A stretch of DNA of 64,000 nt from Erwinia amylovora (lineage in GTDB: Bacteria > Pseudomonadota > Gammaproteobacteria > Enterobacterales > Enterobacteriaceae), in contig NZ_CP066796.1 in NCBI RefSeq assembly GCF_017161565.1, positions 434,001 to 498,000 of the forward strand. The letters are read 5' to 3'. The translations under genes were made by a program, and so were the position numbers. The notes under the pieces were generated by a model. The model made no database searches. It was given only the letters and a program-made list of their open reading frames with translations, and was not told where the DNA came from. Shown piece after piece: positions 14,583 to 34,626 of the stretch. The number at the start of each line of letters is the position of its first letter. Position 1 is the stretch's first letter.

Positions 14583-14667
14583 GCCGAAGTGGCGAAATCG
14601 GTAGACGCAGTTGATTCAAAATCAACCGCCGCAAGGCGTGCCGGTTCGATTCCGGCCTTCGGCACCA
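14583..14667 (+). tRNA. leuX: tRNA-Leu(CAA), leuX
   Basis: An 85-base tRNA with CCA encoded. The acceptor stem GCCGAAG pairs with CTTCGGC, the anticodon arm is GTTGA-TTCAAAA-TCAAC (anticodon CAA), a long variable arm follows as expected for tRNA-Leu, and the T-arm holds GGTTCGATTCC. It is nearly identical to E. coli leuX, a well-known island integration site. Here an integrase starts 186 bases downstream and part of the 3' end recurs at 38143-38155. Confidence 0.98.
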
Positions 14668-14681
14668 TAAGTATGTAAATG

Positions 14682-14704
14682 GACCTCTCTGGAGGTCTTT
14701 TTTT
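14682..14704 (+). terminator. leuX terminator
   Basis: GACCTC / GAGGTC hairpin with a TCTG loop followed by a T run, 15 bases after the tRNA CCA end. The same structure is duplicated at 38174-38197. Confidence 0.85.
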
Positions 14705-14780
14705 ATGCCTGAAATCCGTCAGTTACCTGCTTTTCTCGCTATATTTACTCTCTCAAGGTCAACCGACTTCAACGTACATC

Positions 14781-14840
14781 TACCAACACATGTTGGTACA
14801 GATGATGGTATTTCCGGTTCGATAATGCTTGTACCAACAG
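14781..14840. other. Putative integrase arm-binding sites, left end
   Basis: TACCAACA (14781-14788) faces TGTTGGTA (14791-14798) across two bases, and a third copy TACCAACA lies at 14832-14839 just before the integrase start. The same octamer recurs twice near the right end at 38067 and 38079. Clustered direct and inverted octamers at both ends of an island are what arm-type integrase sites look like; binding is inferred. Confidence 0.55.
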
Positions 14841-14853
14841 GGAGGGGATAAGC

Positions 14854-16131
14854 ATGGCTCTAACAGATATTAAAGTCAGAACAGCCAAGCCTACGGATAA
14901 GCAATATAAGCTGACTGATGGCAACGGTATGCATCTTCTCGTCCACCCAAATGGTTCAAGATACTGGCGTCTGCAGTACCGCTTTGGCGGGAAGCAAAAG
15001 ATGCTGGCTTTAGGCGTATATCCTGATGTGTCTCTTGCAGATGCCAGAGCTCGTCGCGATGAAGCACGTAAGCTTTTGGCAAACAGCATCGATCCGGGAG
15101 ACAAAAAGAAAAATGATAAGGTTGAACAGGAAGAAGCGCGCACTTTTGAGGAGCTTGCTGTTGAGTGGCACGCTACAAATAAAAAGTGGTCGGAAGAACA
15201 TAGCCGACGAGTATTAAAAAGCCTGGAGGACAACCTCTTTCCTGCCATTGGCAAACGTAATATTGCTGAACTAAAAACGAGAGATCTGTTAGCACCAATT
15301 AAAGCCGTGGAGATGTCTGGACGTCTTGAAGTGGCATCGCGTCTACAGCAGCGCACTACTGCAATTATGAGATATGCCGTTCAGAGTGGTTTACTTGATT
15401 ACAATCCCGCACAGGAAATGGTTGGTGCTGTTGCTTCAAGTAACAGGCAGCATAGACCTGCATTGGAGTTGAAACGTACCCCCGAACTGCTTCAGCGCAT
15501 AGACAGCTATACCGGTAGACCTTTGACCTGCCTTGCCGTTGAGCTAACCCTCCTTGTATTTATTCGTTCAAGTGAACTGCGTTTTGCTCGTTGGTCTGAG
15601 ATCGATTTTGAAACATCGATGTGGATGATTCCTGCCGAGCGAGAAGCTATTGAGGGAGTAAAGCACTCACAGCGAGGTTCGAAAATGCGGACACCTCATC
15701 TGGTTCCACTTTCCCGACAAGCTCTGGCGATTCTTGAGCAGATAAAAACGTTCAGCGGTGATCATGAACTGATCTTTATTGGCGATCATAACCCTCGCAA
15801 ACCGATGAGTGAAAACACAGTTAACAAGTCATTGCGAGTAATGGGATATGACACACAAATTGAAGTGTGCGGCCACGGTTTCAGGACCATGGCATGTAGT
15901 TCGTTGATTGAGTCAGGATTGTGGTCGAGGGATGCCGTAAAACGACAGATGAGCCATATGGAGCGTAACTCTGTGCGTGCGGCTTACATTCATAAGGCCG
16001 AGCATCTGGATGAGCGCAAGCTAATGCTGCAATGGTGGGCTGACTTCTTGGATGCGAATCGGGAGAAGGCGGTGAGTCCGTTTGATTTTGCGAAGATTAA
16101 CACATCGATAAAAATTCAGAATGGCTTATGA
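14854..16131 (+). CDS. P4-type tyrosine integrase of the leuX island
   Basis: This 425-residue tyrosine recombinase would catalyse site-specific insertion and excision at the leuX 3' end. It opens with the DUF4102 arm-binding domain typical of P4-like integrases (Met-Ala-Leu-Thr-Asp-Ile-Lys-Val-Arg-Thr-Ala-Lys-Pro). A SAM-like core-binding domain follows (about 100-200), then the catalytic domain with the first Arg in Ser-Ser-Glu-Leu-Arg-Phe-Ala-Arg-Trp, the His-Gly-Phe-Arg box and the terminal His ... Tyr in Ser-His-Met-Glu-Arg ... Ala-Ala-Tyr-Ile-His. All catalytic positions appear present, so it may be active. GGAGGGG stands 7 bases before the ATG. Orientation away from the tRNA is the usual arrangement. 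Confidence 0.95.
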   Translation: MALTDIKVRTAKPTDKQYKLTDGNGMHLLVHPNGSRYWRLQYRFGGKQKMLALGVYPDVSLADARARRDEARKLLANSIDPGDKKKNDKVEQEEARTFEELAVEWHATNKKWSEEHSRRVLKSLEDNLFPAIGKRNIAELKTRDLLAPIKAVEMSGRLEVASRLQQRTTAIMRYAVQSGLLDYNPAQEMVGAVASSNRQHRPALELKRTPELLQRIDSYTGRPLTCLAVELTLLVFIRSSELRFARWSEIDFETSMWMIPAEREAIEGVKHSQRGSKMRTPHLVPLSRQALAILEQIKTFSGDHELIFIGDHNPRKPMSENTVNKSLRVMGYDTQIEVCGHGFRTMACSSLIESGLWSRDAVKRQMSHMERNSVRAAYIHKAEHLDERKLMLQWWADFLDANREKAVSPFDFAKINTSIKIQNGL

Positions 16132-16196
16132 TTGCCGAGTACATTCGATGTGAATCTCAAAAGGTAGTACTCAACTCATAGATACTTGTAGTGGGT

Positions 16197-16221
16197 CTCA
16201 CTGACACGATGGGTCAGTGAG
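16197..16221. terminator. Hairpin between integrase and dptF
   Basis: A perfect nine-base stem (CTCACTGAC / GTCAGTGAG) with a seven-base loop lies 65 bases after the integrase stop. No T run follows it on the plus strand. It may end integrase transcription or serve as an operator for the dpt operon, whose promoter must lie between here and 16366. Confidence 0.45.
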
Positions 16222-16366
16222 GCTAATACCTTAGCTATCGATGCCTGCAGCCATGTGAGAGCAGCATTTGTTGAAACGCTGAGTGGTAATTGGAGAAAAG
16301 GTATATAGAGATCATGGGTTAGCTTGTATACAATGAGAGAATTCTTTCTTTAGAGAACATGAAGTT

Positions 16367-18013
16367 ATGAGCGCAATCACATTACGCAAAGCGTTGGGTG
16401 TACTCGCGAAGTCATCTTCGTTTTCTGTCACCACGGTAACGCACCGGCAAAGAGACGTGTTTGATCAGTTAAAAGAACAACTCTTTGTTAAACAAGATAT
16501 TGAAAAAGATTTACTACATCACTTGGACGCTGCTAAACCCGGTGAAATCATTTTTTTGTGTGGCAGTAGTGGGGATGGTAAGTCAGAAATTTTAACCCGC
16601 TGTCAGTCAAACCCACGTTACCAGCAGCGATTTGTCTTTCATCTGGATGCGACGCATAGCTTTGCCCCCCAACAGACCGCAATTGATGCTTTGGACGATT
16701 TGTTCGACAATCATCAGAAGCAACTATGTCCGTTGCTGGTGGGTATCAATACGGGGATGCTCGCCAACTTTGCGAGAGAAGGTGCTGAACGTCATCATGT
16801 ACTTCGTTTTGTGATTGATGCATTTTTATCTAGCCAGCAAGAAAGTAGTGGCCCTTTTCACAGTGACAATTGTTCTTTTTTTGATTTTGAAAATTATCCT
16901 AAGTTCCAGTTTGATGAAGACAGACAATACTCACCATTTATAAAAAAATTATTAAATCAATTAACCAGTGATGATGAAAATCTGTTTTACACTATTTTTC
17001 AACGTGATGAATCAATTAATCATGATTTAAAAACAGTTGCTAATTTCAAGCTGCTTTGTATGCCCGGCGTTCAGAATGTCTTAATCACCCAGCTATTTAA
17101 AGCCCGATTAATTAAGGACCAATTTGCTACAACAAGAACATTGCTGGATTTTTTGCATCACCTGCTTACTGGGCCGGGTTACTTGTTTGATAACCTCTTC
17201 AATGGTGAAGAGAATGACTTGATTAAAAAGGTCTCTGATTTCGATCCTGCCAGAATGCATACCTACGAGCTCGATCAGTTCATTTTACGTTATGAGCTGG
17301 GAGTGATTGATCCAGACTTGGATGATTTCCTCTTAACACTTGAGAAATTACATATTCAATTTGATCGCCAGTGTGTTAAGCCGGGCGATGCGGCCTCGCT
17401 AATTAGACTCTTCTGGCTGCTACAATATGTGTCGTTGGGTAATAATTATCATCATAAATTTTCAGGGTTTTTTAAAGAATCTCTGTTTGAACGTTACTCA
17501 CAAATCTGGCATTTGCATAAAAACTACATCGCAGATCCAGAGCAGAAAAGATCGTTGAACCGATTTTACTCTTCTGAGCTTATAGCTGGTATTCAGCGCT
17601 ACGCAAATCGTAAAGCGCCTGAGTTGATCACACAAAAAGAAGAGTTTTTTTTGGGCGAATTTGGCGGGGTAAAAGTCACCGCACCAGTGGTGGTGAAACC
17701 GGACTGGGATGCAATTTTCAGGAAAAATACAGCGCACTCAACCTGCTTCGACATTCATCTAAAGGTGGGACAAAACTCTTTGCTGCCTATTCGTATCGGA
17801 CTTAATTTATTTGACCTACTGAGCAAGTTGAATAACGGCTATCGCCCTAATAAGTATGACAAGAGTGCGATTGTATTACTGGATGAAATAGTTGAACTGA
17901 TTGCTGAACGAGCCAAATCGAGTAGTGAAATCAAGTTTTATGATGGCGCACAGCGGGTTTACACCGCTAGGGCCGATGACGACATGATCACCATCAGCGG
18001 CATGGAGAGATAA
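16367..18013 (+). CDS. dptF: DptF, phosphorothioation-dependent restriction ATPase
   Basis: First gene of the dptFGH restriction operon, which attacks DNA lacking the phosphorothioate mark made by DndCDE. The 548-residue product has a Walker A motif Gly-Ser-Ser-Gly-Asp-Gly-Lys-Ser at residues 66-73, right after Gly-Glu-Ile-Ile-Phe-Leu-Cys, and a long helical remainder without further recognisable domains. This layout and its position directly before DptG and DptH identify it. In characterised systems DptF, DptG and DptH are all needed for restriction. It is followed by dptG after 4 bases. The gene is AT-rich compared with the core genes around it, as expected for acquired DNA. Confidence 0.9.
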   Translation: MSAITLRKALGVLAKSSSFSVTTVTHRQRDVFDQLKEQLFVKQDIEKDLLHHLDAAKPGEIIFLCGSSGDGKSEILTRCQSNPRYQQRFVFHLDATHSFAPQQTAIDALDDLFDNHQKQLCPLLVGINTGMLANFAREGAERHHVLRFVIDAFLSSQQESSGPFHSDNCSFFDFENYPKFQFDEDRQYSPFIKKLLNQLTSDDENLFYTIFQRDESINHDLKTVANFKLLCMPGVQNVLITQLFKARLIKDQFATTRTLLDFLHHLLTGPGYLFDNLFNGEENDLIKKVSDFDPARMHTYELDQFILRYELGVIDPDLDDFLLTLEKLHIQFDRQCVKPGDAASLIRLFWLLQYVSLGNNYHHKFSGFFKESLFERYSQIWHLHKNYIADPEQKRSLNRFYSSELIAGIQRYANRKAPELITQKEEFFLGEFGGVKVTAPVVVKPDWDAIFRKNTAHSTCFDIHLKVGQNSLLPIRIGLNLFDLLSKLNNGYRPNKYDKSAIVLLDEIVELIAERAKSSSEIKFYDGAQRVYTARADDDMITISGMER

Positions 18014-18017
18014 CATC

Positions 18018-19340
18018 ATGTATCCCATTGCAACAACGTTAAAAGTGGGCAACAACCAACTGGATAGCTACCTGCCGGTGCGCAATAAAAACAATAATAT
18101 TGACTGGCAAATTGTCACTGGCTTGGTACTGAGTTATGCCGTGAAGTATAAAATCGACACTTATAATCTCGAACAATTTCGCGAAGATTGCAAAACTTAC
18201 CTGCAAACATTTAATGATGAACCAGCCTTCTGGCCTTTATTGGAGCGAATGTATTTTTCCAGCTTGGATATCTTTCGGGTTTCTCCGCTTTTTTTGCTGT
18301 TTCACGCCCAATTCGATGATGAAAAAATAAGCTTAGGCTCTATGGCAGATAAACGCCTTGGGACGTTGTTTGCCAATTTGATGAGAGGTTTCAGCCTAAA
18401 TTATCCGATACAGGACAAGCTGAACTTCATTGAACAACAAATGCTGAATAAGCTCAATGAGAAAGTAAAATTGCTGGGGGAAGGTCCGTTTGCCGAAGAG
18501 AAACCTTACCTGCCCTATCTGGTTACGTGCTTTCAGTCCGATCTGGCATTTCTGGCTGATCATCCGCAATATCTTTTGCAGGAATTGACTAATACTCTGC
18601 GTTTGTATGCCTTTAGCTGGTGTGCTCAACTGGCGCTCAACCTAGATAACTGGCGGGATGGTGAACCCAAAAGTAAGTCGCTGTTTTTTATTCTTGATAC
18701 CGAAAAAGCCAGCTCAGAACGGGATCAAATAAAGCGTTTTGGCTATAAGTGGTTTTCCAGCCAAAGTGAAAAACTTTTCCCCATACTTTCCGCGCTGGAG
18801 GTTTTGCAATGGGGAAAAGGGGCGAAAAAGCGTCCATTGTGGCAGGTTTATCAGGATACCTTGAATTATTCAGATCCTTCTTCGCAGATATTAAATGCTC
18901 TCAACAAATATTTGCAGGAATTTATTGAGGATCGCCAACTCTCCTCTCGTGATCAAGCTACAAACCTGGACGATGCTTTTAAACAGCTATTGTCCGTCGC
19001 TGTTGAACAGTTTCAAGGCAAGAAGTCTGAAAGGGCATCGGTAAATCGCAAATACATTAATGAGCTAGAGTGCCAGATTTGTGCTGATTTCATCCAGGTA
19101 CGTGGCCGGGCAGGGAAAGTACTGGTGTTGAATCAAGATCGACTGCTGCTGCTAACCAATCTTACTGTGGGTAAAAACAAAAAACTCCGGTTGCATGAAC
19201 TGCTGCGCGGTTTTGAGCAACGCGGATTTTATCTCGATAACCAGTCGACACAAATGCTGGTGGCGTTTTACGAACGTATGGGAAATGTGGAGCGAATGAG
19301 TGACAGTGGAGATGCCGTATATGTCCGTAAAACAGTATGA
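18018..19340 (+). CDS. dptG: DptG, phosphorothioation-dependent restriction protein
   Basis: The 440-residue protein has no motif I recognise by eye; it is identified by its place between DptF and DptH and by the usual DptG length. It is predicted soluble and mostly helical, with a Cys-rich point (Glu-Cys-Gln-Ile-Cys-Ala-Asp) near residue 355. Known genetics of Salmonella and E. coli systems makes it an essential part of the DptFGH restriction machine. It starts 4 bases after dptF and its last 20 bases overlap the start of dptH, so the three are translated together. Confidence 0.85.
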   Translation: MYPIATTLKVGNNQLDSYLPVRNKNNNIDWQIVTGLVLSYAVKYKIDTYNLEQFREDCKTYLQTFNDEPAFWPLLERMYFSSLDIFRVSPLFLLFHAQFDDEKISLGSMADKRLGTLFANLMRGFSLNYPIQDKLNFIEQQMLNKLNEKVKLLGEGPFAEEKPYLPYLVTCFQSDLAFLADHPQYLLQELTNTLRLYAFSWCAQLALNLDNWRDGEPKSKSLFFILDTEKASSERDQIKRFGYKWFSSQSEKLFPILSALEVLQWGKGAKKRPLWQVYQDTLNYSDPSSQILNALNKYLQEFIEDRQLSSRDQATNLDDAFKQLLSVAVEQFQGKKSERASVNRKYINELECQICADFIQVRGRAGKVLVLNQDRLLLLTNLTVGKNKKLRLHELLRGFEQRGFYLDNQSTQMLVAFYERMGNVERMSDSGDAVYVRKTV

Positions 19341-22300
19341 AACCTATCTGGCGAAAACCTTCATTGAATGGGTTAGCTGTACCATCCAGCCGGGTGAACG
19401 CTACCAGTTTAAATCTCCTGATCCCGATAACGCCTTAAAACTCTGGAAGGCTTTCGACTTTTTAGCTGATGGCAATAAACTGGAGATCGCGCCGGAGCAG
19501 CAACTTTCATGCGTCTCATGTAATGGCATCCAGCTTATTCCAGTATTGCACGGTTCAACTGCTCCTGCGTTTACGGAAAACTACATTTCCCATTTGCGCG
19601 ATAAAGTTTCCGGTCGCAACGGGATTTTTGCCAAAACGGCGTTGTTAATTATCCATAACAGCATGTTGGATACTTTACTCAATAGTACCAAGGATGTTGC
19701 CGCTCCGGATGCAATCTGGCATCCCGAAACTTTCTGTCATCAACTGGAAAAATTAATCACCACGAACAGCAACCATTCGCAAGTGTCCCGTTGTTTGCTG
19801 GGTGATCAGTTGACAACGATACTGGATGAAGGCGCAACAGTATTTGGTTTTTCGTCCTTATACCGTCTTTTGGAAGACGGCAACCTGGATTTCTCTGAGT
19901 TAAAGCTATTCAACGATAATAATGTATTGGATTTTAGAGATAAGCAGCTACGCGCCCGGTTGAATGAAAATCAAGAATTATATCGCCAGATAGAGGACAG
20001 TATTGAGCGTTACAGTGGGCAGCTGGAGAATGTGCTGACCGAGTTCAGTACTAAATTCATTCAGCAACACTTTGTCGATAAAGACGATTGGCGTGAGCTT
20101 GATTTTTCTGTCTACCAGGAAGAGAAAGCGCGTAACAGCGAACAGAAGCTGGTGCTGGAAAATATCTGCGTTGAAAACGGTGAGGTCTGGCAGAGAGCAA
20201 AAAGCATTAGTAAAGCGGGTAAGCGTGATATCAGTGTCTTGGTTCAGGTACAGCCGGGACAATCGCACGTAGAACTGGAGTTCAGCTTTCAGAGTAACGA
20301 CCTTCAGGATGATCAGATAAAAATTGCTCATCATCGCCAGCTAAAGAAAGAACGTTTCTGGCGCACCAGTCGTGCTGGGGGGAAAACCTCCCGCATTATG
20401 GCGTCAGTGCCTTTCGATGGGCGTCCCTGCTTCTTTAGCCTAGAAATAATCAACCGCAATAACTCGGCGGAAGAGTATAAGTTTCGTCTACTGTTAGTTG
20501 AACAGGGGCAATTCTGGCTGAACGAAATCCAGCATTGCTACCGCGTTGAACCTGGTAAAGAGCAGTTGACTCTGCAACTGGAAGATAATGAGTTACAGAT
20601 TGCAGAAACAGGCGACCAGATCTGTACGGTGAATGAAGAGAACAATGACATTGATTGTCTGCACTATGCGCGAGTGAATTTTGAGACGCTAGCGAATCAA
20701 AGCGAGTTGATAAAATTTGCGCTGATTTCAGGTGATTCCCGTCTACTGCTTAATATCGAAGGGCCGGGGGCAGAGGAAGGATTAACGCTACCACTGCTTT
20801 TTGATCAGAACCGTTTCAATAAGCTCTTCAAAGAGGAGGGTAATGCGACCTGGAACCGGATGAAGGGGCGTGTCATTTTGGATAACACCGAACATAACGT
20901 GGTCGGTGTACGCCAGCAGTTGCTGGCCCTGGAAGCCTCACTGATCGACCGTAACTTGCTCGGTATAGATAGTGATGACAGCGTATTTGCAGTGGAGGAA
21001 CTCCTTACCAGCTACCCCGACCTCCATAATGCGTATCATCAACTGCTGGCATACTATCAGCGGCGTAACACTTTGCCGAGCTTGGTGTCGTGGTCAGTGG
21101 AATACCGTACGCTGGTTAGCCATGTAGTCGCTACTTTTGAACAAGCACTACAACAAATTGGCCTGAGCAGAGCGCTGACGTTACAGGAAAAACGGTTGCT
21201 ACATCTGGGAATTTGCCGTGGCGATACGCATGAACGCCTCTCGCCATTACATCCTTTAGTGCTGGCTTATCATTTACAACTGGTAGAAACCATCATCGCG
21301 GAGCCAGAACAACCCACACTGGCTTCCTTTGCCTCATTACCACCGATTACCCTCGATCGCTTGGTTGTCTCTGGCTTAATGCCGTTTGTGTACCATAGCG
21401 AACATGAATATGCGCAGCTTCAATCAGTAGTGGAAAATCGATTCTGGATTGACGTTATTCCTCAGCGCCAGATGAGTCATGACTACGTTAAACGACTGGT
21501 AAAAGACAAACTTAACGAATTCACAGACGCCTATTCACGGTTGTTCCAGAGAGCTGGGAATAATGCATTGATTATCAATGCTATCAACCAAGGCAATGCC
21601 AGAGAGCTATTCCTGGGGCTGGTGGAGTACTTTAAGCAGGAAAAAGAGCGGGCAATTTCGGTACATGTAAACTGCTACGATGAACGTCTGCTGCCCAATG
21701 CCTTTGACCACTTTGCTGAAAGCGGCAGCTATGAACAACTTAAAATCGACCTTGGCCTAAACAGTGGTACATGGCGTGCAGAAGCCGATATGCTAATTGA
21801 TTTGCTGCGTAGCCGATTAACGTTCAGCAAATTTGTCCTGCCGTCAGCAAATGACAAACTGGCTTATGCTCATCTGGCGTTTTTCACCAATACCGCACCG
21901 GTGGATTGCCGCCAGATTTGCATTGAAGATGCCTCTAGTGGCGTGTTATGCCATGGCCTCATTGCGGGGGAAGGGGCTGAAACCCAGGGCGATGCATACT
22001 TTACCGCTTTTGGTTTGCGTAATGTCGATACTGAGCCTTATTGCGCCCTACGCCTTGCCCGGCTGTTGGGCTGCCTGTGGCAACCAGCGCGGCAGAGCAA
22101 CAGCCAGTATCACTGTCAGGGTATTGGTCTGGCAGTCAGCGGTAATTTTAAGCAGTTGCTCAACCACTCTTATGACAGCTCGCTCTGGACCACCATTATC
22201 GACCCCAAAGTCACGCTTGATTTTTTTACCAACCAGAAAGATGTGGTACTGATCCATTACTCTGACCAGTACACCAGTTGCGCAGGTTATGACGCTGTGA

Positions 22301-22425
22301 CTGTCACAAAGCAGGTTGAGTTGTTCCTGCGTCTGCTCCAGACAGGAAATCAGATCGGACAACCAACTGTTGACAGCCAGCACCTGCTTGCTGAATTTAA
22401 TGCCTTAACGGTGAATGGCTGCTGA
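19321..22425 (+). pseudogene. dptH: dptH, 5' part (reading frame broken at its end)
   Basis: This frame covers the first 1034 residues of DptH, the large subunit of the phosphorothioate-sensing restriction complex. I start it at ATG 19321 because GGAG lies 9 bases before, inside the end of dptG; an in-frame GTG at 19300 lacks this. The frame ends at TGA 22423-22425. Two bases later, in the -1 frame, begins a second long frame carrying the rest of the protein. Adding one base near GCCTT (22402-22406) would join them as Asn-Ala-Leu-Asn-Gly-Glu-Trp-Leu-Leu-Lys-Met. The joined gene would be 1693 residues, about what I recall for an intact DptH. So this is a frameshifted dptH, or a truly split gene, or a sequencing error. 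Confidence 0.8.
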
Positions 22426-22427
22426 AA

Positions 22428-24401: not shown

Positions 24402-25219
24402 CAATTATTGAAGCCATAATTAAAGTATTGAAAGAGTATGGAAACCCGTTATCACATAATGATATCTATGATCGAATAATAGCGAATGATTATTATTCTT
24501 TTGGTGCAAAGGATCCCATTTCAGTCGTTAGAGGGGAAATAAGAAAACACTGCTATGATATTGACTTTCCTAGTGCTTCACCACGTAAGATATTCATAGA
24601 AGTAAAATCAAATCACCTATCTAAACCTCTATATGATTTGTGGCGTGGTCAGTCGACCAAAATTGAATCTCCGAAGCTGGAGAAAACTACCAAGGATCAA
24701 CTACCGGAAGAAATTATACATTCCAAGTATATTGAACACATAAAAAATGTTAAAAATCAATTGCTTGATGCTATTAATTCGTCAGATCCAGCTTTTTTTG
24801 AGCGGCTAGTAGTCACCCTATTGTTAAAGATGGGGTACGGATGGCATGAGTCTGAAGCGGGAAAAGTTATTGGTGGTGCTGGGGATGAGGGAATTGATGG
24901 TATTATTAATGAAGATAAATTAGGCTTGGAAAAAATATATATCCAAGCAAAACGATATAATAGTAAAAAAGTCCCACCTAGTGAAATTCGAGAATTCATT
25001 GGCTCAATGAATCAAAAAGGAGCTCACAAAGGTGTATTCTTTTCATCTTCATGTTTCACTGAGCAAGCAATGAATAGCGCACAAAAGGCCCAAGGCATGA
25101 CTATTACATTAATTGATGGACAACAGTTATGTGAATACTTGGTTCAAAATGGAATGGGGGTTGCTAAAGTAAGCACTTATGATCTTTACGAGATAGATAG
25201 GAACTTTTTTGATATATAG
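24398..25219 (+). CDS. HARE-HTH / Mrr-type restriction endonuclease coupled to dptH
   Basis: The 273-residue protein joins two domains. Residues 1-75 look like a HARE-HTH winged-helix domain (Thr-Ile-Ile-Glu-Ala-Ile-Ile-Lys-Val-Leu-Lys ... Pro-Leu-Ser-His-Asn-Asp-Ile-Tyr), known from restriction endonucleases and chromatin proteins. Residues 125-250 are an Mrr-type PD-(D/E)XK nuclease: Phe-Glu-Arg-Leu-Val, Gly-Asp-Glu-Gly-Ile-Asp-Gly (Asp167) and Tyr-Ile-Gln-Ala-Lys (Gln183, Lys185). Mrr-type enzymes usually cut modified DNA. I chose ATG 24398, which overlaps the dptH stop as ATGA and has GGGAGC before it. The overlap makes it the fourth gene of the dpt operon and suggests a joint role; it is not part of the classical DptFGH set. 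Confidence 0.85.
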   Translation: MTIIEAIIKVLKEYGNPLSHNDIYDRIIANDYYSFGAKDPISVVRGEIRKHCYDIDFPSASPRKIFIEVKSNHLSKPLYDLWRGQSTKIESPKLEKTTKDQLPEEIIHSKYIEHIKNVKNQLLDAINSSDPAFFERLVVTLLLKMGYGWHESEAGKVIGGAGDEGIDGIINEDKLGLEKIYIQAKRYNSKKVPPSEIREFIGSMNQKGAHKGVFFSSSCFTEQAMNSAQKAQGMTITLIDGQQLCEYLVQNGMGVAKVSTYDLYEIDRNFFDI

Positions 25220-25367
25220 TCTTAATGCGAAGAATAGCCTGACGTTTTAGAAAATTATCAGCAGGTAGTGATTTTTCATCATGGCTATAGTGTGATGATT
25301 TAAACTAAATACTCCAAGCTTAGTGATGATTGTGTTACATTTTATTAATTGTGTATATCAAATAGAG

Positions 25368-25391
25368 GTCTTAAGGATTATGCCTTAAGAC
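25368..25391. terminator. Hairpin between the converging dpt and dnd operons
   Basis: A perfect nine-base stem (GTCTTAAGG / CCTTAAGAC) with a six-base loop lies in the 204 bases between the stop codons of the converging Mrr-type gene and methyltransferase gene. It has no long T run, but its position suits a bidirectional end point. Confidence 0.55.
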
Positions 25392-25423
25392 ATCACTCTC
25401 AATATAATAACATTCAAGTGAAT

Positions 25424-25942
25424 TTATTTTATATATATGTAATTTACAAATATATCATTTGAATCTTTTAGATTAGAAGATGTTTCCCATTCTTTAATTA
25501 AAGTCATATTCAAATCATCTTCAAATAATTTTTTGATGAATTCTGAATCGTAATAATAAAATATCCTGCTATCATTTTTTGTGTTTTTTTTATTTTGTTG
25601 TTTTTTCAAAGAAAAATAGATCACTCCGGATTTTCTAGTTGCTTTATATAAACGAAATGAAGCATTTTTAAATTCGCTCTCATTAAGATGAAGTAATGAT
25701 GCACACGCCCAAATTAAGTCAAATTTAGGAGGGTAGTCAATTTCATTGAAATCTAATTTTTCACAAAATGCAAAGGGATATTGATTGCATAGATATACCA
25801 TTTCTTTTGATGCATCAAATGATGTGACTTTATAACCATGCCTTATAAAATATTCAGTATCTCTACCAATACCACACCCAGCGTCTAATATCGAGGATCC
25901 CGGTTTAAAATGCTTGCGAATTTCATTATAGATTTCGCTCAT
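25424..25942 (-). CDS. Class I SAM-dependent methyltransferase, N terminus upstream of any usable start
   Basis: From ATG 25942 the product has 172 residues and shows motif I, Leu-Asp-Ala-Gly-Cys-Gly-Ile-Gly-Arg-Asp (near residue 20), motif II with Thr-Ser-Phe-Asp-Ala-Ser, and Phe-Asp-Leu-Ile-Trp-Ala-Cys-Ala-Ser-Leu-Leu-His-Leu, a Rossmann SAM-binding fold of the small-molecule methyltransferase kind, not a DNA methylase with a recognition domain. The same frame stays open 31 codons further upstream and reads like a genuine start (Phe-Tyr-Asp-Lys-Asn-Ser-Ile-Asp-Tyr-Phe-Arg-Lys-Thr), but holds no ATG, GTG or TTG; an ATA stands where the start would be expected. It may use a rare start, be a decayed gene, or be shortened. 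It is last in the dnd operon. Confidence 0.75.
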   Translation of the reverse strand: MSEIYNEIRKHFKPGSSILDAGCGIGRDTEYFIRHGYKVTSFDASKEMVYLCNQYPFAFCEKLDFNEIDYPPKFDLIWACASLLHLNESEFKNASFRLYKATRKSGVIYFSLKKQQNKKNTKNDSRIFYYYDSEFIKKLFEDDLNMTLIKEWETSSNLKDSNDIFVNYIYIK

Positions 25943-26013
25943 ATCAATCGATGCTGTTTTTCTAAAATAATCAATACTATTTTTATCATAAAAAGAAATG
26001 TTTTTTTTTGTTT

Positions 26014-26787
26014 CTATGATGTTTTCTTTTTTGATTCAAAATTTATAATGACCTTAAGTTTTCTTATTTCGCTATCAATTGCACCATTTATCTCTAAAGG
26101 AAATACAATATCTTCAAGCTCAGAGTTATCTTTATTGAGAACTCCACGGGCTGCACATTTCAATATACGATAGTGAGCTATTAGCTTTCCGAGCAGTGTA
26201 TGTAGCTCTGGGTTATCTACATATCCAGAGTTACTTTCGATCAGTAGTGTTATTTTATCAGAAATATCAATTATTTGCTGTAACAACTCTTTATCATGGG
26301 TGTCAAGCACATTGTTATTGTTATTGTTATTGTTATTGTTATTGTTATTGTTATTGTTATTGTTACTTTGTATTAAGTAGCGTAAGGCTCGGAAGTATTT
26401 TCCTTCGGATCTAAGTTTTTCTTTTTCTTTCAATGCAAAGTGGCTATATATTATTCTTGACTCTTCTAATAATGAATTAAAAGGCCCATAGAATTTTTCT
26501 ATTTTTTCTTTTGCATTATTTGCGAAAGTAATTTTTCTCTCTCGTAACTCTATTTGTTGTTGTTGCTGCCTATCTTTCCGATACTTAGTGATAGTATGAA
26601 ATGCTATAGCCAAAGAAACCAAAGCCGTAATAAATGATGTTATAGCTGACAATTCAGTTGGTTGAAGCCCCAATAGTCCTTTTGAGGTATTATTACTGGT
26701 TGATTCAATATATACATTCGTTATTAGTGAATTATTAGAATAGTCCTTTTTAATATATGGAGTGATAATGTGATTTTTATTTTCCAT
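26014..26787 (-). CDS. Membrane-anchored protein with an 18-Asn tract, fifth gene of the dnd operon
   Basis: I do not recognise this 257-residue protein. One membrane segment lies at residues about 45-65 (Leu-Ser-Ala-Ile-Thr-Ser-Phe-Ile-Thr-Ala-Leu-Val-Ser-Leu-Ala). A basic Gln/Arg/Lys-rich helix follows (about 68-100), then a helical domain interrupted by 18 consecutive Asn near residues 142-159, and a final helical part. The basic region after the membrane segment suggests that the C-terminal bulk is cytoplasmic. It starts 4 bases after the dndE stop, so it is surely cotranscribed with dndBCDE. The Asn tract is a linker whose length can change in steps of two residues through its hexanucleotide repeat. 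Any role in phosphorothioation is inferred from location only. Confidence 0.7.
   Translation of the reverse strand: MENKNHIITPYIKKDYSNNSLITNVYIESTSNNTSKGLLGLQPTELSAITSFITALVSLAIAFHTITKYRKDRQQQQQIELRERKITFANNAKEKIEKFYGPFNSLLEESRIIYSHFALKEKEKLRSEGKYFRALRYLIQSNNNNNNNNNNNNNNNNNNVLDTHDKELLQQIIDISDKITLLIESNSGYVDNPELHTLLGKLIAHYRILKCAARGVLNKDNSELEDIVFPLEINGAIDSEIRKLKVIINFESKKKTS
26311..26364. repeat. Nine-copy hexanucleotide repeat (ATTGTT)9 inside a gene
   Basis: Nine perfect tandem copies of ATTGTT, read on the minus strand as alternating AAC-AAT, encode 18 Asn residues of the protein at 26014-26787. A six-base unit changes in number without shifting the frame. Confidence 0.97.
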
Positions 26788-26791
26788 GATG

Positions 26792-27145
26792 TTATATCCC
26801 GAATGAGAGGTCTTTTAGAGAACGGTAGTTTCTCAATGCCGCAATCCCATCCTCAACATGTGCCGCCCACGCTTTAATTAACATTTTCTGCTCTATCTGT
26901 GGATACAGCATTTTAAGAATTAAATCCGTGGCCTGTAATGTCTCCCCTAACCACGTAATTTTATCTAGTATCAAAACACCATCCAGCTTCATACTATCTC
27001 GCTCAGGCAAATAACGAAAATCGGTTTCCACCGAACGGAAAAACGCCAACCGTGCGGCGACATTCGGCGTGATCCCTGTGTATCCTTTTAGCTTTTTTAG
27101 TTGTTCTTCTGTCTGTCGACTGAGCTGCATTCGGTTTGGGAGCAT
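26792..27145 (-). CDS. dndE: DndE, DNA phosphorothioation protein
   Basis: The 117-residue protein matches DndE in size, position and sequence type (Leu-Ser-Arg-Gln-Thr-Glu-Glu-Gln-Leu-Lys-Lys-Leu-Lys near the start; Gly-Ile-Thr-Pro-Asn-Val-Ala-Ala-Arg-Leu-Ala-Phe). DndE is a small tetrameric DNA-binding protein that acts with DndC and DndD in replacing a non-bridging phosphate oxygen by sulphur. Its ATG shares one base with the dndD stop (TGATG) and has AAGGAGG 7 bases before it, a strong site giving coupled translation. The next gene starts 4 bases after its stop. Confidence 0.92.
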   Translation of the reverse strand: MLPNRMQLSRQTEEQLKKLKGYTGITPNVAARLAFFRSVETDFRYLPERDSMKLDGVLILDKITWLGETLQATDLILKMLYPQIEQKMLIKAWAAHVEDGIAALRNYRSLKDLSFGI

Positions 27146-29145
27146 CAGATTGCCTCCTTGGTTAATTCCCAGAAATAGCCTGGTTTTAGAATCGATGACT
27201 TGGTATGTGCATTAAAGACGATCTCATAAGCATGGGAGATGTCGTCACGAAGTTGATCGACAAAGTAACGTTCATCTACTTCTGTATCAGTGGACAGCAG
27301 AACAACTTGATGACTGGCCTCGGGGAAGTAATGGTTAATCAACTTATCTCGGTGCTGCGAGTCCAGACGTCCCAGCGGTGTATCGATGATAACTGGTAAA
27401 TCACGACCAGAGGTTTTAGCCAGTGCCTCAAGTATTGCAATTGCATAAATTTGCTTTTCACCAGCAGATAGTAATTTTCGGTTTATCACTGAACCATTTT
27501 CATCAATTAATTCCACATCAAACGTTCCAGGATTGATATGTGCACTAAGTTGTAAATCCTCTTTACGAGCCAACTTACGGTAGGCCAATTCAAAATTAGT
27601 AGCCAAAGTTTTTACTCGTGCTTGAGTTAAAACATCGCTGTAACGATCGAGTAAATTTATTGTTTCTTGAGCATTCTTAAAGGCGCTACTGTAATTGTGC
27701 TGATAGCGAACGGCATCATGTGCTTTTTGTATCTGGCGGACGCAATCCAGTTGTTGTTGTTTTGTGTGTTTAGCCTGTTCTAGAAATAAACAATATTTTT
27801 GCCGCTGAGCTTCGCGCTGCCGATCCAAATCGCGTAATTTTTCGAATAGATCCATTAACTGATCGTCTTCAGGCGCACGGGCAATGTTAGCAGCGGCTTG
27901 TTCAAGCTGTAGTTCAACTTCAGCTAACTGATTACGATAAAGATCAAAGTGTTGCCATGCTCTCTTGCTTTCCTGCCCGATGGAATGTTGAAGCATACCC
28001 GCTTCTCGTTCAGAAATATCAAAAAGCAAATCGCCTTTAGGTTTGTTTGCCATATACTCTTTCAGATTATCTGTAATGGCTTCAGTAGCGATTTTACTCG
28101 TGGTGCTGGAGCGCAATGCAATATCGTTTCCGAGTTGAGTTAAAAACTGACTCAGTTCTTTTTCAAAGCTTTTTGCCTGCTTGATCTCCGTTTCATTCGC
28201 AATCTGTTGTAGTAAACGGGACAAGGTATTAGGAGCCAACGCATAAGGTAGCGCACCATCAAATTCCTGACGTAATGCTTTCTCCAGACGTTCCCTATCT
28301 TTTAGTAAAGTTTCAGCCTTATTTTTTTCTTGCATCTTTGTCTGAGCAAACGCACCGCCTTGTGCATTCAATAGGCCTTCATAACGGATGATGTCTTTAG
28401 ACAGAAACTCGATTCGTGTATTGGCAAAATCAGCTTTTTCCAGCAGTTCTTCCGTCTGACCAGCTAATTTTCTACTTTGCGTCTCAAGCTTTGCAATATG
28501 TTGTTGCTGAGAACCTTCCAACTGGCTGGATTGCTGGCGCTTAATTAAAATCACTAAATCATTGCGTAGCTTAGATATCAGATCTAAACCTAACAGGCGA
28601 CGTACAGCAGTACGCAGAATATTGCCGGATTCATCTTCCGCCAGTTCCGCAATTTTTTCACCATCAAAAAAGAACAAATCAGCGATGCCATGCGGAATCA
28701 ATTCATTAAGGAATCCCTGGCATTGCTCATAATCGAACTCACTCAGAGGTTGCCCATCCTGCTGTAGAGAAAGCTGGTCTTTCTTGCCTTTTTCCCAAGT
28801 TCGCGTGACGGTAAATTCTGCCTCATTACCACCTTTATTGTAGGTAAACGTCAGTTCTACCGATGCTTCCGCCACCTGTTCACTACAGTACGCACCGTTA
28901 TGAATCAGTGCGCTGAGCTGCTCAATATATTCTTGTTGCTGCGTCGCGAGGCCAAATGCCATTCGACCATACAACGCCAGTCGGATTGCCGATAAAATCG
29001 AGGTTTTTCCTGCGCCATTTAAGCCACCAAACAATACGATAGGTCGTGGATTTTCATCGTGTAGACGCTTTCTGGGAGCTAAATCAATGGTGTGTGTACC
29101 GCTGAATACTCGAAAATTACGCAATACTAATTGCTTAATTAACAT
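27145..29145 (-). CDS. dndD: DndD, SMC-like ATPase of DNA phosphorothioation
   Basis: The 666-residue protein is an SbcC/Rad50-like ATPase. Walker A (Gly-Leu-Asn-Gly-Ala-Gly-Lys-Thr-Ser) lies near residue 40, and a long coiled coil fills residues about 200-510. The C-terminal part holds the signature Leu-Ser-Ala-Gly-Glu-Lys-Gln and Walker B Leu-Pro-Val-Ile-Ile-Asp-Thr-Pro-Leu-Gly. DndD is thought to use ATP to remodel or nick DNA during sulphur insertion. I place the start at ATG 29145 (Met-Leu-Ile-Lys-Gln-Leu-Val-Leu-Arg-Asn-Phe-Arg): it has GTGAGGA before it, overlaps dndC by 11 bases, and gives the normal family N terminus, unlike a start 30 codons upstream. Confidence 0.94.
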   Translation of the reverse strand: MLIKQLVLRNFRVFSGTHTIDLAPRKRLHDENPRPIVLFGGLNGAGKTSILSAIRLALYGRMAFGLATQQQEYIEQLSALIHNGAYCSEQVAEASVELTFTYNKGGNEAEFTVTRTWEKGKKDQLSLQQDGQPLSEFDYEQCQGFLNELIPHGIADLFFFDGEKIAELAEDESGNILRTAVRRLLGLDLISKLRNDLVILIKRQQSSQLEGSQQQHIAKLETQSRKLAGQTEELLEKADFANTRIEFLSKDIIRYEGLLNAQGGAFAQTKMQEKNKAETLLKDRERLEKALRQEFDGALPYALAPNTLSRLLQQIANETEIKQAKSFEKELSQFLTQLGNDIALRSSTTSKIATEAITDNLKEYMANKPKGDLLFDISEREAGMLQHSIGQESKRAWQHFDLYRNQLAEVELQLEQAAANIARAPEDDQLMDLFEKLRDLDRQREAQRQKYCLFLEQAKHTKQQQLDCVRQIQKAHDAVRYQHNYSSAFKNAQETINLLDRYSDVLTQARVKTLATNFELAYRKLARKEDLQLSAHINPGTFDVELIDENGSVINRKLLSAGEKQIYAIAILEALAKTSGRDLPVIIDTPLGRLDSQHRDKLINHYFPEASHQVVLLSTDTEVDERYFVDQLRDDISHAYEIVFNAHTKSSILKPGYFWELTKEAI

Positions 29146-30769
29146 TTTCGTTTTCCTCACCGGCAAATACAGATGATTCACTGGCATCGACAATTCTACG
29201 TTGTAAAACTTGAAGCTCAGCTTCCAGTCTGGCAACTTCTTCCTGATGAATATCCCGATCGTTTCGTTTCTGCAGTGTTATCTGATTTTGCTGAATCTCT
29301 TCCAAACTACCCCAGTCTTGCTTCAAAATTGTACCGAGCTTGTCAAATATCCCCTGACGGCGACTTAATCCTTCCATTGAAACTTCCAACTCAATAAGTT
29401 TCATTACCATCTCTGGTACAACGTCAAATCCTTGGGCAATCTGTATCAGCAAATCAGCATCGCTGGCATCAAAGCGTGATTGATCATCAACCACCCAGTC
29501 GAGTTCCTGCTGGTACACCTCACGGTAAATACCTGGGAGGGTGTCATACCAGTCAGGTTCATTGGGGTCTTTCAGCCACTCCTGACGGATAGCGTGCAAT
29601 TCCAGTTTGGTGATTAACGTAATGGTGTGACCCTGCGCATTCAAATCACGCTCAATTTTAAGTAAATCTTTTAGCCACTCCTGACGATATTTTAGCCAGT
29701 AAGGGCCAGGAACATGTTTACGTTCTGCGCTAAGCTCCTCACCATCCTTAGCGTATTGATAGCTCACTTTGCCGGTACGGCGTTTATAGTTGCGATAAGT
29801 GTCTTTATTAGCGGGATCGGTGGTAAATGCCAGAAGATCACGATATTTCAGTAACGGAGACATCCACTCTTCTCCATTCTTGATCAGGCTTTCCATCGCT
29901 TTATCTTTGGTAACCACTGTGCAGGTCCAGCAGCCAAAACGTGAATTTCCGCAGGAAGGGGTACTTTCGTCGATTACAAGTGGACACTCCCCCTGTGCGG
30001 AAGAATCCATATACAGTGTCCAAAGCGGACGATTGTTGCCTCCCCACGGGCTTTCCCACTCTTCAATATCTTCAGGAGAATATCGGAACGCACCACGTAA
30101 TAGCTTCCAGACATCTTCCACATCCCAAGCATCAATGGGAGTATAGATAAAAGCGTTTGCCAGCGTGGTATGTCGGGCGAGGCGCGAGCCATCAATTTTG
30201 TGTTTTGCAATTACCTGCGCACGGGAAGCGCTTTCGCTACTGCGCGAACCTAAAACCACAATCACCTCATCAAACTGGCTGACTTTATCTTTGATAAAAT
30301 CACTGACCGGGTTGATCTTCATTCGTTCGGTACACCAGCGGAAACTCCGAGTGGGTGCCGGATAACCTTTTCCTAGCAAGTTAACCCAGAACGTTTCATT
30401 AGTTTTGGGCATCACCGCATGCTGGGTGATTGGCAGGCGATTACGTTTTGCACCAGCCTCAATTTGCAACATGGTTTTCTTAATCAGATCAACCACTACT
30501 GGCGTTTCTACCAGAGTATCTGATGATACTAAGAAAACATCTTTATTGCGCATTTCCGGAGGCAGGCCCAGTAAGGCCAGATATACCAAAGTAATAACCG
30601 CTGAAGAATCTTTACCGCCACTGTAGCCAATTACCCACGGACGTTTATCCGCACAATAAATTCTCTGAACTTCTGTAACATATTCCGCCAGAGGGCGTCC
30701 GGCGAATTGTTCCTGATTAATAAAATCTTCGTACTCGGCCAGATCGAAGGCCTGAACCAGTTTACTCAT
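29135..30769 (-). CDS. dndC: DndC, PAPS-reductase-like sulphur transferase
   Basis: DndC delivers sulphur to the DNA backbone. The 544 residues show the PP-loop Gly-Tyr-Ser-Gly-Gly-Lys-Asp-Ser-Ser near residue 50 for ATP pyrophosphatase activity. They also carry a Cys cluster (Glu-Cys-Pro-Leu-Val ... Ser-Cys-Gly-Asn-Ser-Arg-Phe-Gly-Cys-Trp-Thr-Cys, about residues 260-285) that fits the known [4Fe-4S] cluster of DndC. The last 40 residues form a coiled coil. The sulphur must come from a cysteine desulphurase; dndA is absent from this island, so a chromosomal IscS would have to serve, as in other enterobacteria. It overlaps dndB by 4 bases and dndD by 11. Confidence 0.95.
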   Translation of the reverse strand: MSKLVQAFDLAEYEDFINQEQFAGRPLAEYVTEVQRIYCADKRPWVIGYSGGKDSSAVITLVYLALLGLPPEMRNKDVFLVSSDTLVETPVVVDLIKKTMLQIEAGAKRNRLPITQHAVMPKTNETFWVNLLGKGYPAPTRSFRWCTERMKINPVSDFIKDKVSQFDEVIVVLGSRSSESASRAQVIAKHKIDGSRLARHTTLANAFIYTPIDAWDVEDVWKLLRGAFRYSPEDIEEWESPWGGNNRPLWTLYMDSSAQGECPLVIDESTPSCGNSRFGCWTCTVVTKDKAMESLIKNGEEWMSPLLKYRDLLAFTTDPANKDTYRNYKRRTGKVSYQYAKDGEELSAERKHVPGPYWLKYRQEWLKDLLKIERDLNAQGHTITLITKLELHAIRQEWLKDPNEPDWYDTLPGIYREVYQQELDWVVDDQSRFDASDADLLIQIAQGFDVVPEMVMKLIELEVSMEGLSRRQGIFDKLGTILKQDWGSLEEIQQNQITLQKRNDRDIHQEEVARLEAELQVLQRRIVDASESSVFAGEENENVN

Positions 30770-31851
30770 GAGACAACCATTTGAGCTTCAAGCTCCTGTT
30801 CTTCAGGAGTGAGGGGAAGGGATAGCGCAATTTTTAGTGCGTTACAGGTTAGCTGAATCGCCGTACTTGTTTTGCTCAGCTTGCCATGTTGCATTGATCT
30901 TTTGATCAAATTCGGATTGTTTCTACGCCAGTTAAATGTTTTGAGTGCGGCAATTTTCTCCGGCCATTGCTCAGGATAATCCCTCAGTAGTGCATATCCC
31001 AGTTGTCCGAGAGCCTGTAAACCGATGCCGTGAGCGTGAACATAGTCCTGCCGTAGCTGGACAGGTGAGACCTCTTTTTTAGCTGCTAGTTGCCAATCCG
31101 GCATCACACTGAAAATAGCTAGCCAGTAACTGGCCGCTATTTGGGTACATTCTTCAAAATTGTCCTCTTTGGGTTCTTTTCCAAGTAGAGCGCGGGTTGC
31201 CTGCTTGATGCTGCTTAAGGTAAACAATTTATTTGACCGCTGGCTGATACCTGATTTTTCTAACTCAGTCATCCCTATGAACGGTTCAATGGACATCGCC
31301 AAATAACGAGCCAGATTTGAACTTGCATCACGATGATCGTAAAGCGACGATAATGAAGGACTAGGGCGGATGGCGTATTTGTTCAGATCGGCGAACATTT
31401 GCTGGCTACGTTTTAAACCTTCATCGACGAAAAATAGCACCGGAATATTATCCTGCCCTAATTCAGGGCGAGCATCTAAAGCGTCTTCAATCGCCTTACG
31501 GCGATGCTGACCGTCATTGATTAAAATTTGAGCATCCATTGGCACACATAGCGTCCCCAGATTATTGGAACCGGGAAACTCATCAAACTGGACATCGACG
31601 GCAATGGAGGCTGTCAGTGCTGAAAACACATAATCTTTTGGGTTTTCCAAGAGATAACGCACCATTTCGGGTATGCGTGATTTATTCAGTGTACGTTGTG
31701 CTCGTAATTCCGGTGGCACGTCGTTTTCATCAAAACTGAATATTTTCGGAATGATACGCATTGGGCATGTGGCAATGTAGAAAGGACGTCCAGCCTGAAT
31801 GCCACGTATAGCTGGAAACGAGTAGCAATAATCTGCATCAACATTAGCCAT
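30766..31851 (-). CDS. dndB: DndB, DGQHR-domain regulator of the dnd operon
   Basis: The 361-residue protein carries the family-naming motif Asp-Gly-Gln-His-Arg (Ile-Asn-Asp-Gly-Gln-His-Arg-Arg-Lys-Ala-Ile) near residue 113, followed by Phe-Phe-Val-Asp-Glu and Phe-Ala-Asp-Leu-Asn-Lys, a ParB-like fold. In Salmonella DndB represses the dnd operon and modulates the modification level. It is the first gene of the leftward operon and overlaps dndC by an ATGA. Two TACG-N10-CGTA palindromes lie 35-95 bases upstream of its start and may be its own operators. Confidence 0.94.
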   Translation of the reverse strand: MANVDADYCYSFPAIRGIQAGRPFYIATCPMRIIPKIFSFDENDVPPELRAQRTLNKSRIPEMVRYLLENPKDYVFSALTASIAVDVQFDEFPGSNNLGTLCVPMDAQILINDGQHRRKAIEDALDARPELGQDNIPVLFFVDEGLKRSQQMFADLNKYAIRPSPSLSSLYDHRDASSNLARYLAMSIEPFIGMTELEKSGISQRSNKLFTLSSIKQATRALLGKEPKEDNFEECTQIAASYWLAIFSVMPDWQLAAKKEVSPVQLRQDYVHAHGIGLQALGQLGYALLRDYPEQWPEKIAALKTFNWRRNNPNLIKRSMQHGKLSKTSTAIQLTCNALKIALSLPLTPEEQELEAQMVVS

Positions 31852-31885
31852 ATGTAGTCCGTATGAAGCATTGAGTGAATTCTGT

Positions 31886-31946
31886 TACGTCATATTTTAC
31901 GTAATACGTGATTAGATTTGTAGTCTTTTACGTGATTTTTTGCGTA
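31886..31946 (-). promoter_or_regulatory. Two putative DndB operators upstream of dndB
   Basis: TACG-N10-CGTA occurs exactly at 31886-31903 and again at 31929-31946, 43 bases apart (about four helical turns), within the promoter region of dndB. As I recall, this palindrome is the reported DndB-binding motif of Salmonella. Both spacers are AT-rich. Auto-repression by DndB is the likely meaning; binding has not been shown here. Confidence 0.7.
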
Positions 31947-34624: not shown

Positions 34625-34626
34625 CC

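What the first reader, a model, noticed from the sequence alone, without database searches (positions are those of the whole stretch)
14583..31946. Phosphorothioation island with extra genes on both sides: a candidate extended Dnd/Dpt system
The sequence shows dptFGH running right and dndBCDE running left, facing each other. Each operon carries additional genes. A HARE-HTH/Mrr-type nuclease gene is fused by ATGA overlap to dptH. A membrane-anchored poly-Asn protein starts 4 bases after dndE, and a methyltransferase follows it. Classical systems are described as dndBCDE plus dptFGH only. The tight coupling suggests that the nuclease, and perhaps the membrane protein, belong to the system: for example a second effector that cuts unmodified or otherwise modified DNA, or a membrane-linked abortive step. 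That role is inference.
Basis: partly seen in the sequence, partly recalled or inferred. Interest (0 to 1): 0.75.

Follow-up and report, generated by a model that had tools for sequence, protein, structure and literature searches.

The report
Swappable extra nuclease in sulfur-DNA defence
Beside the genes that mark this bacterium's DNA with sulfur sits an extra DNA-cutting gene that, in the relatives examined, usually travels with such sulfur-marking genes, so it is probably an additional, exchangeable weapon of a known kind of anti-virus system, while two neighbouring genes are broken in this copy.

Summary
The island is real: tRNA-Leu, integrase, dptFGH and dndBCDE facing each other, extra genes between. 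Three corrections. (1) dptH lies in two ORFs in different frames (19300-22425, 22428-24401); 18 of 18 other dptH in an order sample are one frame. (2) The 'poly-Asn membrane protein' and the 'methyltransferase' are two pieces of one ~440-aa membrane-anchored methyltransferase gene, also frame-broken here. (3) 'Classical only' is outdated: DndI is a published second effector cotranscribed with dndFGH, and HARE-HTH/REase nucleases beside dnd genes are published.

The HARE-HTH/Mrr nuclease is the solid part. Close homologues lie in dnd islands in 6 of 6 genomes of a family sample (own included; 5 directly after dptH); a distant one (G824) sits with dndC, dndD and a cysteine-desulfurase-type gene in a genome where no dptH was found; 1 of 14 ordinary-Mrr control regions held dnd genes. 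In E. coli 9 of 9 copies overlap dptH. The dptH-dndE gap is an exchange slot (PIN, HEPN, HNH, AIPR, DndI-type or DGQHR cassettes, or empty).

Most likely a dedicated, interchangeable second nuclease of phosphorothioate (PT) defence; PT sensing is untested. New member of a known kind.

The parts
14583..14667 (+). tRNA-Leu (CAA), insertion site of the island
   Evidence: ARAGORN; same tRNA beside dnd islands of E. coli SE11 and FORC_041
14854..16131 (+). tyrosine integrase, open frame of 425 aa
   Evidence: Pfam Arm-DNA-bind_3, Phage_int_M, Phage_integrase
16367..18013 (+). dptF (dndF)
   Evidence: TIGR03238 E 3e-130
18018..19340 (+). dptG (dndG)
   Evidence: TIGR03236 E 1.5e-89
19300..22425 (+). 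dptH, N-terminal piece (frame-broken gene); homology with intact copies starts at residue 8
   Evidence: PADLOC DndH model positions 1-1017 of 1678; BLAST to E. coli DptH
22428..24401 (+). dptH, C-terminal piece in another frame; HerA/FtsK domain from its residue 283 on, the stretch before it expected to hold the REase domain
   Evidence: PADLOC DndH model positions 1025-1678; matches solved DptH chain 7es4 at residues 283-656
24398..25219 (+). HARE-HTH/Mrr nuclease, 273 aa, ATGA overlap with dptH
   Evidence: Pfam HARE-HTH and Mrr_cat; E135, D167, Q183, K185 invariant in 23 aligned relatives
25424..25942 (-). C-terminal piece (class I SAM methyltransferase) of the frame-broken membrane methyltransferase gene
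   Evidence: Methyltransf_25 E 3e-11; aligns to the C-terminal part of the 440-aa protein P0122
26014..26787 (-). N-terminal piece of the same gene: one predicted membrane segment (residues 46-64) and an 18-Asn run
26311..26365 (.). 6-base tandem repeat, 9.2 copies, encoding the Asn run; published as length-variable in this species
   Evidence: PMC10587187
26792..27145 (-). dndE
   Evidence: PF08870 E 1.6e-27
27145..29145 (-). dndD (the ORF runs to 29235; homology starts at its residue 31)
   Evidence: PADLOC DndD E 1e-297
29135..30769 (-). dndC
   Evidence: TIGR03183 E 4e-160
30766..31851 (-). dndB
   Evidence: TIGR03233 E 7e-138

Best explanation
A phosphorothioate (PT) modification-restriction island in which the gap between the convergent dptFGH and dndBCDE operons is an exchange slot for extra effectors. 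The occupant here is a two-domain nuclease (HARE-HTH reader plus Mrr-type PD-(D/E)xK cutter) that belongs to a subfamily dedicated to Dnd systems and works as a second restriction enzyme beside, or instead of, DptFGH. Shown: domain make-up, conserved catalytic residues, repeated association with dnd genes across species, one pairing with dndC, dndD and a cysteine-desulfurase-type gene where no dptH was found. Inferred: that PT marks on self-DNA restrain it and that it cuts invading DNA lacking them, as published for DndI and DndFGH; the HARE-HTH is the likely sensor. In this assembly dptH is frame-broken, so the nuclease may be the only complete PT-linked cutter left, unless the two DptH pieces are made separately and still assemble.
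For: HARE-HTH + Mrr_cat, E135/D167/Q183/K185 invariant in 23 of 23 aligned relatives. Family sample: close homologues (over 400 bits, a clear gap to the next at 196) in 6 of 392 genomes, own included; 6 of 6 in dnd islands, 5 directly after dptH, the sixth near dndE at a contig end. G824, the 196-bit hit, has it beside dndC, dndD and an Aminotran_5-type gene, and no DptH was found in that genome. Two more distant homologues (about 29%, L057 and L058) lie in dnd islands beyond dndB, each overlapping a class V aminotransferase of the cysteine-desulfurase type. Species-wide scan: 3 loci, 3 of 3 in dnd islands. E. coli: 9 of 5426 genomes, 9 of 9 overlapping the dptH end. Controls: 14 of the 35 other genomes with ordinary-Mrr matches were read, 1 of 14 has dnd genes in the region; Fisher p about 7e-5, not corrected for relatedness. 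Slot exchange. Published parallels: DndI (PMC11662687), HARE-HTH/REase with Dnd genes (PMC10853773).
Against: Nothing here measures PT sensing or cutting. The slot also takes cargo with no evident defence role (glycosyl hydrolase and AraC-type genes in L068) and can be empty (E. coli L165), so position alone proves little. One ordinary Mrr (L147) also lies in a dnd island. In G967 the copy lacks a recognisable start and one conserved residue (D163) is changed, so it can be lost or decay. None of the 16 dpt-dnd slots in the other order genomes holds the close subfamily. Which module it follows by sequence divergence could not be told. The class sample (369 genomes) held no full-length member besides the window's own.
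Confidence: 0.6

Rival explanations
1. A modification-dependent (type IV) nuclease: the HARE-HTH recognises base-modified phage DNA that escapes DptFGH, and PT plays no part in its control. It rides with the island because the two activities complement each other.
For: HARE-HTH domains are proposed readers of modified bases, probably cytosine (passages of PMC10853773 and PMC11037411); the Mrr family holds methylation-dependent enzymes (recalled); best PADLOC match is a 'Type IV methyl-directed' model.
Against: Ordinary type IV Mrr genes in the controls are mostly not near dnd genes (1 of 14), whereas this subfamily is; in L057, L058 and G824 it sits beside a cysteine-desulfurase-type gene, i.e. 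a modification-type gene.
Confidence: 0.27
2. A passenger of a defence hotspot with its own independent activity and no functional link to PT.
For: The slot is highly variable and sometimes empty or holds unrelated cargo; low G+C of the nuclease gene (0.354 against 0.451 for dptFGH) points to separate acquisition.
Against: The subfamily keeps company with dnd genes in different positions (after dptH, beyond dndB, with dndCD and no dptH found), which a mere insertion hotspot behind dptH does not explain.
Confidence: 0.13
3. A backup suicide effector that attacks the cell's own DNA once DptFGH or the PT machinery is overcome.
For: Rakesh et al. propose such backup roles for some standalone nucleases near Dnd cores (passages of PMC10853773).
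Against: The same passages assign nucleases fused to a DNA-reading domain, HARE-HTH included, to true restriction; this one has such a domain.
Confidence: 0.1

Closest known systems
DndI (Salmonella Cerro 87; IscS-DndBCDE-DndI)
   Same: Extra nuclease gene between dndFGH and dndBCDE, published as cotranscribed with dndFGH and able to work with dndBCDE alone (PMC11662687: abstract, Results part 1 of 2, Discussion).
   Different: DndI is DUF262 plus HNH with ATPase activity; the window's nuclease is HARE-HTH plus Mrr PD-(D/E)xK with no such domains. A DndI-type protein (GmrSD_N plus GmrSD_C) occupies the same slot in L070.
REase fused to HARE-HTH in Dnd gene neighbourhoods (Rakesh et al. 2024)
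   Same: Same domain pair, same association with Dnd genes, and a modification-discriminating role already proposed (passages of PMC10853773).
   Different: [quoted passage not shown] here it overlaps dptH of the restriction operon. Whether their members include this subfamily could not be checked (supplements not available here).
dnd island of Erwinia amylovora (Ham and Park 2023)
   Same: Same order tRNA-Leu, integrase, dptFGH, restriction endonuclease, SAM methyltransferase with a variable Asn repeat, dndEDCB (abstract, passages and section 5 part 1 of 2 of PMC10587187); almost certainly the same species.
   Different: There the methyltransferase is one gene of 442-463 aa and dptH is listed as one gene; in this window both are frame-broken. 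No role is proposed there for the nuclease in the passages seen.
Ordinary Mrr type IV nucleases
   Same: Mrr_cat domain, 30-46% identity over it.
   Different: Their matches start after the HARE-HTH region and only 1 of 14 read regions held dnd genes.

Membership tests
Dnd PT-modification module (DndBCDE) | intact dndB, dndC, dndD, dndE in one operon | tested here: met
Dnd PT-modification module (DndBCDE) | PT in the genomic DNA | not testable with these tools
   needs mass spectrometry or iodine cleavage
DptFGH restriction module | dptF and dptG present | tested here: met
DptFGH restriction module | one continuous dptH frame of about 1700 aa | tested here: not met
   two ORFs in different frames; 18 of 18 other order genomes and 6 of 6 further dptH hits have one frame; one E. 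coli copy is truncated
DndI | DUF262 (GmrSD_N) plus HNH/DUF1524 (GmrSD_C) | tested here: not met
   Pfam finds HARE-HTH and Mrr_cat instead
DndI | nuclease gene in the dptH-dndE gap, coupled to dptH | tested here: met
Dnd-linked HARE-HTH/REase nuclease | HARE-HTH fused to a REase-fold domain | tested here: met
Dnd-linked HARE-HTH/REase nuclease | genomic linkage to Dnd genes in other species | tested here: met
Dnd-linked HARE-HTH/REase nuclease | catalytic residues of the Mrr fold kept | tested here: met
   E135, D167, Q183, K185 invariant in 23 rows; assignment of these as catalytic is recalled family knowledge
Dnd-linked HARE-HTH/REase nuclease | discriminates PT or other DNA modification | not testable with these tools

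The most novel reading that the evidence does not exclude
The HARE-HTH/Mrr subfamily is a stand-alone PT-sensing restriction enzyme: with DndBCDE (or DndCD) and a cysteine desulfurase it forms a third PT defence type that needs no DptFGH, and its HARE-HTH reads the sulfur in the backbone, a substrate not known for this domain. In this strain it has taken over from a broken DptH.
Probability: 0.3. Interest if true: 0.62.

Novelty: new member of a known kind. Interest (0 to 1): 0.38.

Why it matters
If the nuclease depends on PT, PT marking would serve as a shared self-tag for a set of exchangeable effectors (DptFGH, DndI, this nuclease, perhaps PIN, HEPN, HNH or AIPR proteins) plugged into one slot, and the dptH-dndE gap would be a place to look for new PT-linked effectors. 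G824, with the nuclease, dndC, dndD and a cysteine-desulfurase-type gene and no dptH found, gives a natural test without DptFGH.

Tried and rejected
Type IV nuclease against PT-DNA (ScoMcrA-like): rejected as main reading because the same island encodes an intact PT-modification module, so it would attack its own host; not tested.

Methyltransferase as a DNA methylase for self-marking: disfavoured. At the motif IV position the sequence reads ACASLLHL rather than a DNA amino-methylase (D/N/S)PP(Y/F/W) motif (motif knowledge recalled), and its solved relatives are small-molecule methyltransferases. Its real substrate is unknown.

Asn run as functional: it is a length-variable 6-base repeat; database copy P0121 has 6 Asn where the window has 18, and a published survey of 245 genomes reports 6-30 (PMC10587187), so no fixed role is implied.

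Assembly error for the two frame breaks: not settled. The ORF tiling of the core flanks shows long open frames (valS-sized 951 aa, 944 aa and others) and no evident split gene, but no reference was used; reads are not available here.

Divergence analysis to decide whether the nuclease follows dnd or dpt: inconclusive (correlations 0.37-0.69 with dpt genes, 0.42-0.81 with dnd genes, six loci). Phage, plasmid and viral-contig searches: relatives were mostly the Mrr half; none of the 17 viral loci matched before residue 77; 3 of 63 plasmid records covered 80% or more, at 33% identity or less for the two such rows whose identity I could attribute; their neighbourhoods were not read. Promoter and terminator scans: promoter-like sites fewer than in shuffles, terminators at chance level, nothing drawn from them. 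The membrane methyltransferase in the family sample: 36 of 392 genomes match, but the other 35 match only the methyltransferase half, so no further context for the full gene.
Full report
What is there. The window (G000:C1:434001-498000 of a 3.84-Mb genome) carries an island next to tRNA-Leu(CAA) with an integrase, dptF, dptG and dptH rightward and dndE, dndD, dndC, dndB leftward. Its G+C (about 0.45) is well below that of the left and right core flanks (0.56 and 0.55); the nuclease (0.354) and the membrane methyltransferase (0.289) are lower still.

dptH is broken in this assembly. Two ORFs in different frames (19300-22425 and 22428-24401) match the first 1017 and the last 654 positions of one DndH model and align end to end with single E. 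coli DptH proteins. In 18 of 18 other genomes of an order sample (19 of 394 had DptH, own included) and in the 6 further hits, dptH is a single frame of 1689-1741 aa; of the E. coli loci viewed, one (L166) has a truncated dptH. The C-terminal piece contains the HerA/FtsK domain (match to solved chain 7es4 from residue 283); the REase domain published as lying before it should be in the same piece. The second ORF opens with ATG two bases after the stop of the first, so two separate polypeptides are possible; that is speculation. Sequencing error cannot be excluded.

The membrane ORF and the methyltransferase ORF are one gene. Of 26 database relatives of the membrane ORF, 20 are single proteins of 391-448 aa that also carry the methyltransferase domain, for example P0122 of Serratia ficaria (440 aa, 73%). 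P0121 shares the window's N-terminal sequence with 6 instead of 18 Asn and continues through the point where the window's frame ends. Split pairs also occur in Dickeya dianthicola (P0123 and P0148) and one unnamed source (P0125 and P0147). In L073 a 435-aa homologue lies directly after dndE. In the family sample only the window's own genome has the membrane half; the other 35 of 36 matching genomes have the methyltransferase half alone. Ham and Park (PMC10587187; abstract, passages, section 5 part 1 of 2) describe this gene in Erwinia amylovora as a class I SAM methyltransferase of 442-463 aa with an Asn run of 6-30 from a 6-base repeat, beside dpt and dnd. That, with the genome size (3.81 Mb plus 28 kb; that this fits the species is recalled), makes the species almost certain. 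Its substrate is unknown; solved relatives are small-molecule methyltransferases.

The nuclease. It is HARE-HTH plus Mrr_cat, with E135, D167, Q183 and K185 invariant in 23 aligned relatives. No solved chain matches at E 0.01. A protein search gave 7842 relatives among the 8000 scored, 120 listed, including Salmonella, Yersinia ruckeri, Photorhabdus, Vibrio and Pseudomonas.

Association. In 392 genomes of the family, 42 match the nuclease alignment at E 1e-15 or better. Six exceed 400 bits; the next has 196, and the rest 175 or less. I read 20-kb regions (some cut by contig ends) around the five others, the 196-bit hit and 14 of the 35 remaining genomes. Of the six including the window, 6 lie in dnd islands, 5 right after dptH; the sixth (G967) lies about 4 kb from dndE at a contig end, lacks a recognisable start and has one conserved residue changed, its dptH being on another contig. 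The 196-bit hit (G824) lies beside dndC, dndD and a class V aminotransferase homologue, in a genome rated 100% complete where no DptH was found. Of the 14 controls, 1 (L147) has dnd genes in the region. Fisher p is 7e-5 for 7 of 7 against 1 of 14, without correction for relatedness and with controls taken from the top of the list.

Further support. The third (Pseudomonas sp. K2I15, L077) has dptH and dndE adjacent and the nuclease beyond dndB, followed by a DUF262 protein and an AAA protein. In E. coli 9 of 5426 genomes carry it at megablast sensitivity, 9 of 9 overlapping dptH, among 225 genomes with a match to the dpt-dnd region. In two other Enterobacterales families (L057, L058) a homologue of about 29% identity overlaps a class V aminotransferase gene beyond dndB; DndA and IscS are of that type. 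In an order sample, five dptH-bearing genomes (G106, G210, G214, G247, G249) have only an ordinary Mrr on another contig or more than 200 kb from dptH.

The slot. In 16 of the 18 other order genomes dptH faces dnd genes in the region read (L064 ends at the contig edge, L072 shows none). Between dptH and dndE, 7 of 16 have a DGQHR-type gene by BLAST. Of 30 proteins given to Pfam from these and related loci, slot genes include PIN_8 (L059, L060), HEPN_Swt1 (L062), HNH_2 (L063, L066), a weak Mrr_cat (L063), AIPR (L065), GHKL ATPases (L057, L061), a PLD/helicase protein (L067), a DndI-type protein (L070) and, in L068, glycosyl hydrolase and AraC genes. In 11 E. coli loci viewed, of 225 genomes with a match: nuclease plus membrane protein (1), membrane or hypothetical protein plus DGQHR (4), DndB-like plus DGQHR (1), DUF262 plus ATP-dependent endonuclease (1), DUF262 with AAA genes (1), AIPR (1), none (1), and one with dptH itself cut (1). 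Ho et al. 2015 noted 1 to 3 hypothetical proteins between the clusters (passages of PMC4373003).

Mechanism. By analogy with DndFGH and DndI (PMC11662687), PT on self-DNA would restrain the nuclease while PT-free phage DNA is cut, the HARE-HTH doing the reading, as Rakesh et al. propose for such fusions (passages of PMC10853773). Domain make-up and linkage are shown; PT dependence, target and cutting mode are inferred. Pairing with a cysteine-desulfurase-type gene and absence of a detected DptH in G824 favour a link to modification rather than to DptFGH.

Novelty. The kind is known: PT-linked extra nucleases (DndI) and Dnd-linked HARE-HTH/REase fusions are in print, and the island is described for the species. 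What I did not find stated in the passages and sections seen (searches) is that this subfamily is near-exclusive to dnd islands, that it can occur with dndCD and a cysteine-desulfurase-type gene without a detected dptH, and that the dptH-dndE gap exchanges many effector types. Supplementary files could not be read.

Noticed in passing
L077:9998-13753: Pseudomonas sp. K2I15: beyond dndB, the HARE-HTH/Mrr nuclease is followed by a DUF262 (GmrSD_N) protein and an AAA protein; a DUF262 plus ATP-dependent endonuclease pair fills the dptH-dndE slot of E. coli GF124.3 (L163).
   Followed up: partly
L003:13955-14575, L076:10889-11503, L136:9192-9812, L137:10380-11000: A small protein with one predicted membrane segment (204-206 aa, no Pfam family in SE11) sits between the nuclease and dndE in four loci, in the place where the window has the membrane methyltransferase.
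   Followed up: partly
L141:8479-10502 (G824): Cysteine-desulfurase-type gene and HARE-HTH/Mrr gene side by side next to dndC and dndD, in a genome where no DptH was found.
   Followed up: partly
L060:17034-18448 (G247): dptG appears as three ORFs in another Enterobacterales genome with an open dptH; another possible decaying dpt gene.
   Followed up: no
L166:2184-6279: One of two E. coli ST2747 assemblies lacks the dptH C-terminus (annotated incomplete) with a DndE-family gene at the cut, while its sister (L165) has intact dptH, dndE and an empty slot.
   Followed up: no
window 22423-22430: The stop of the first dptH piece is followed two bases on by the ATG of the second, an arrangement that could allow re-initiation.
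   Followed up: no
window 32000-38800: Right part of the island: short, partly decayed-looking ORFs; Ham and Park list toxin-antitoxin, RadC, DUF932, DUF4942 and AlpA genes beside dndB in strain ATCC49946. Not annotated here.
   Followed up: no
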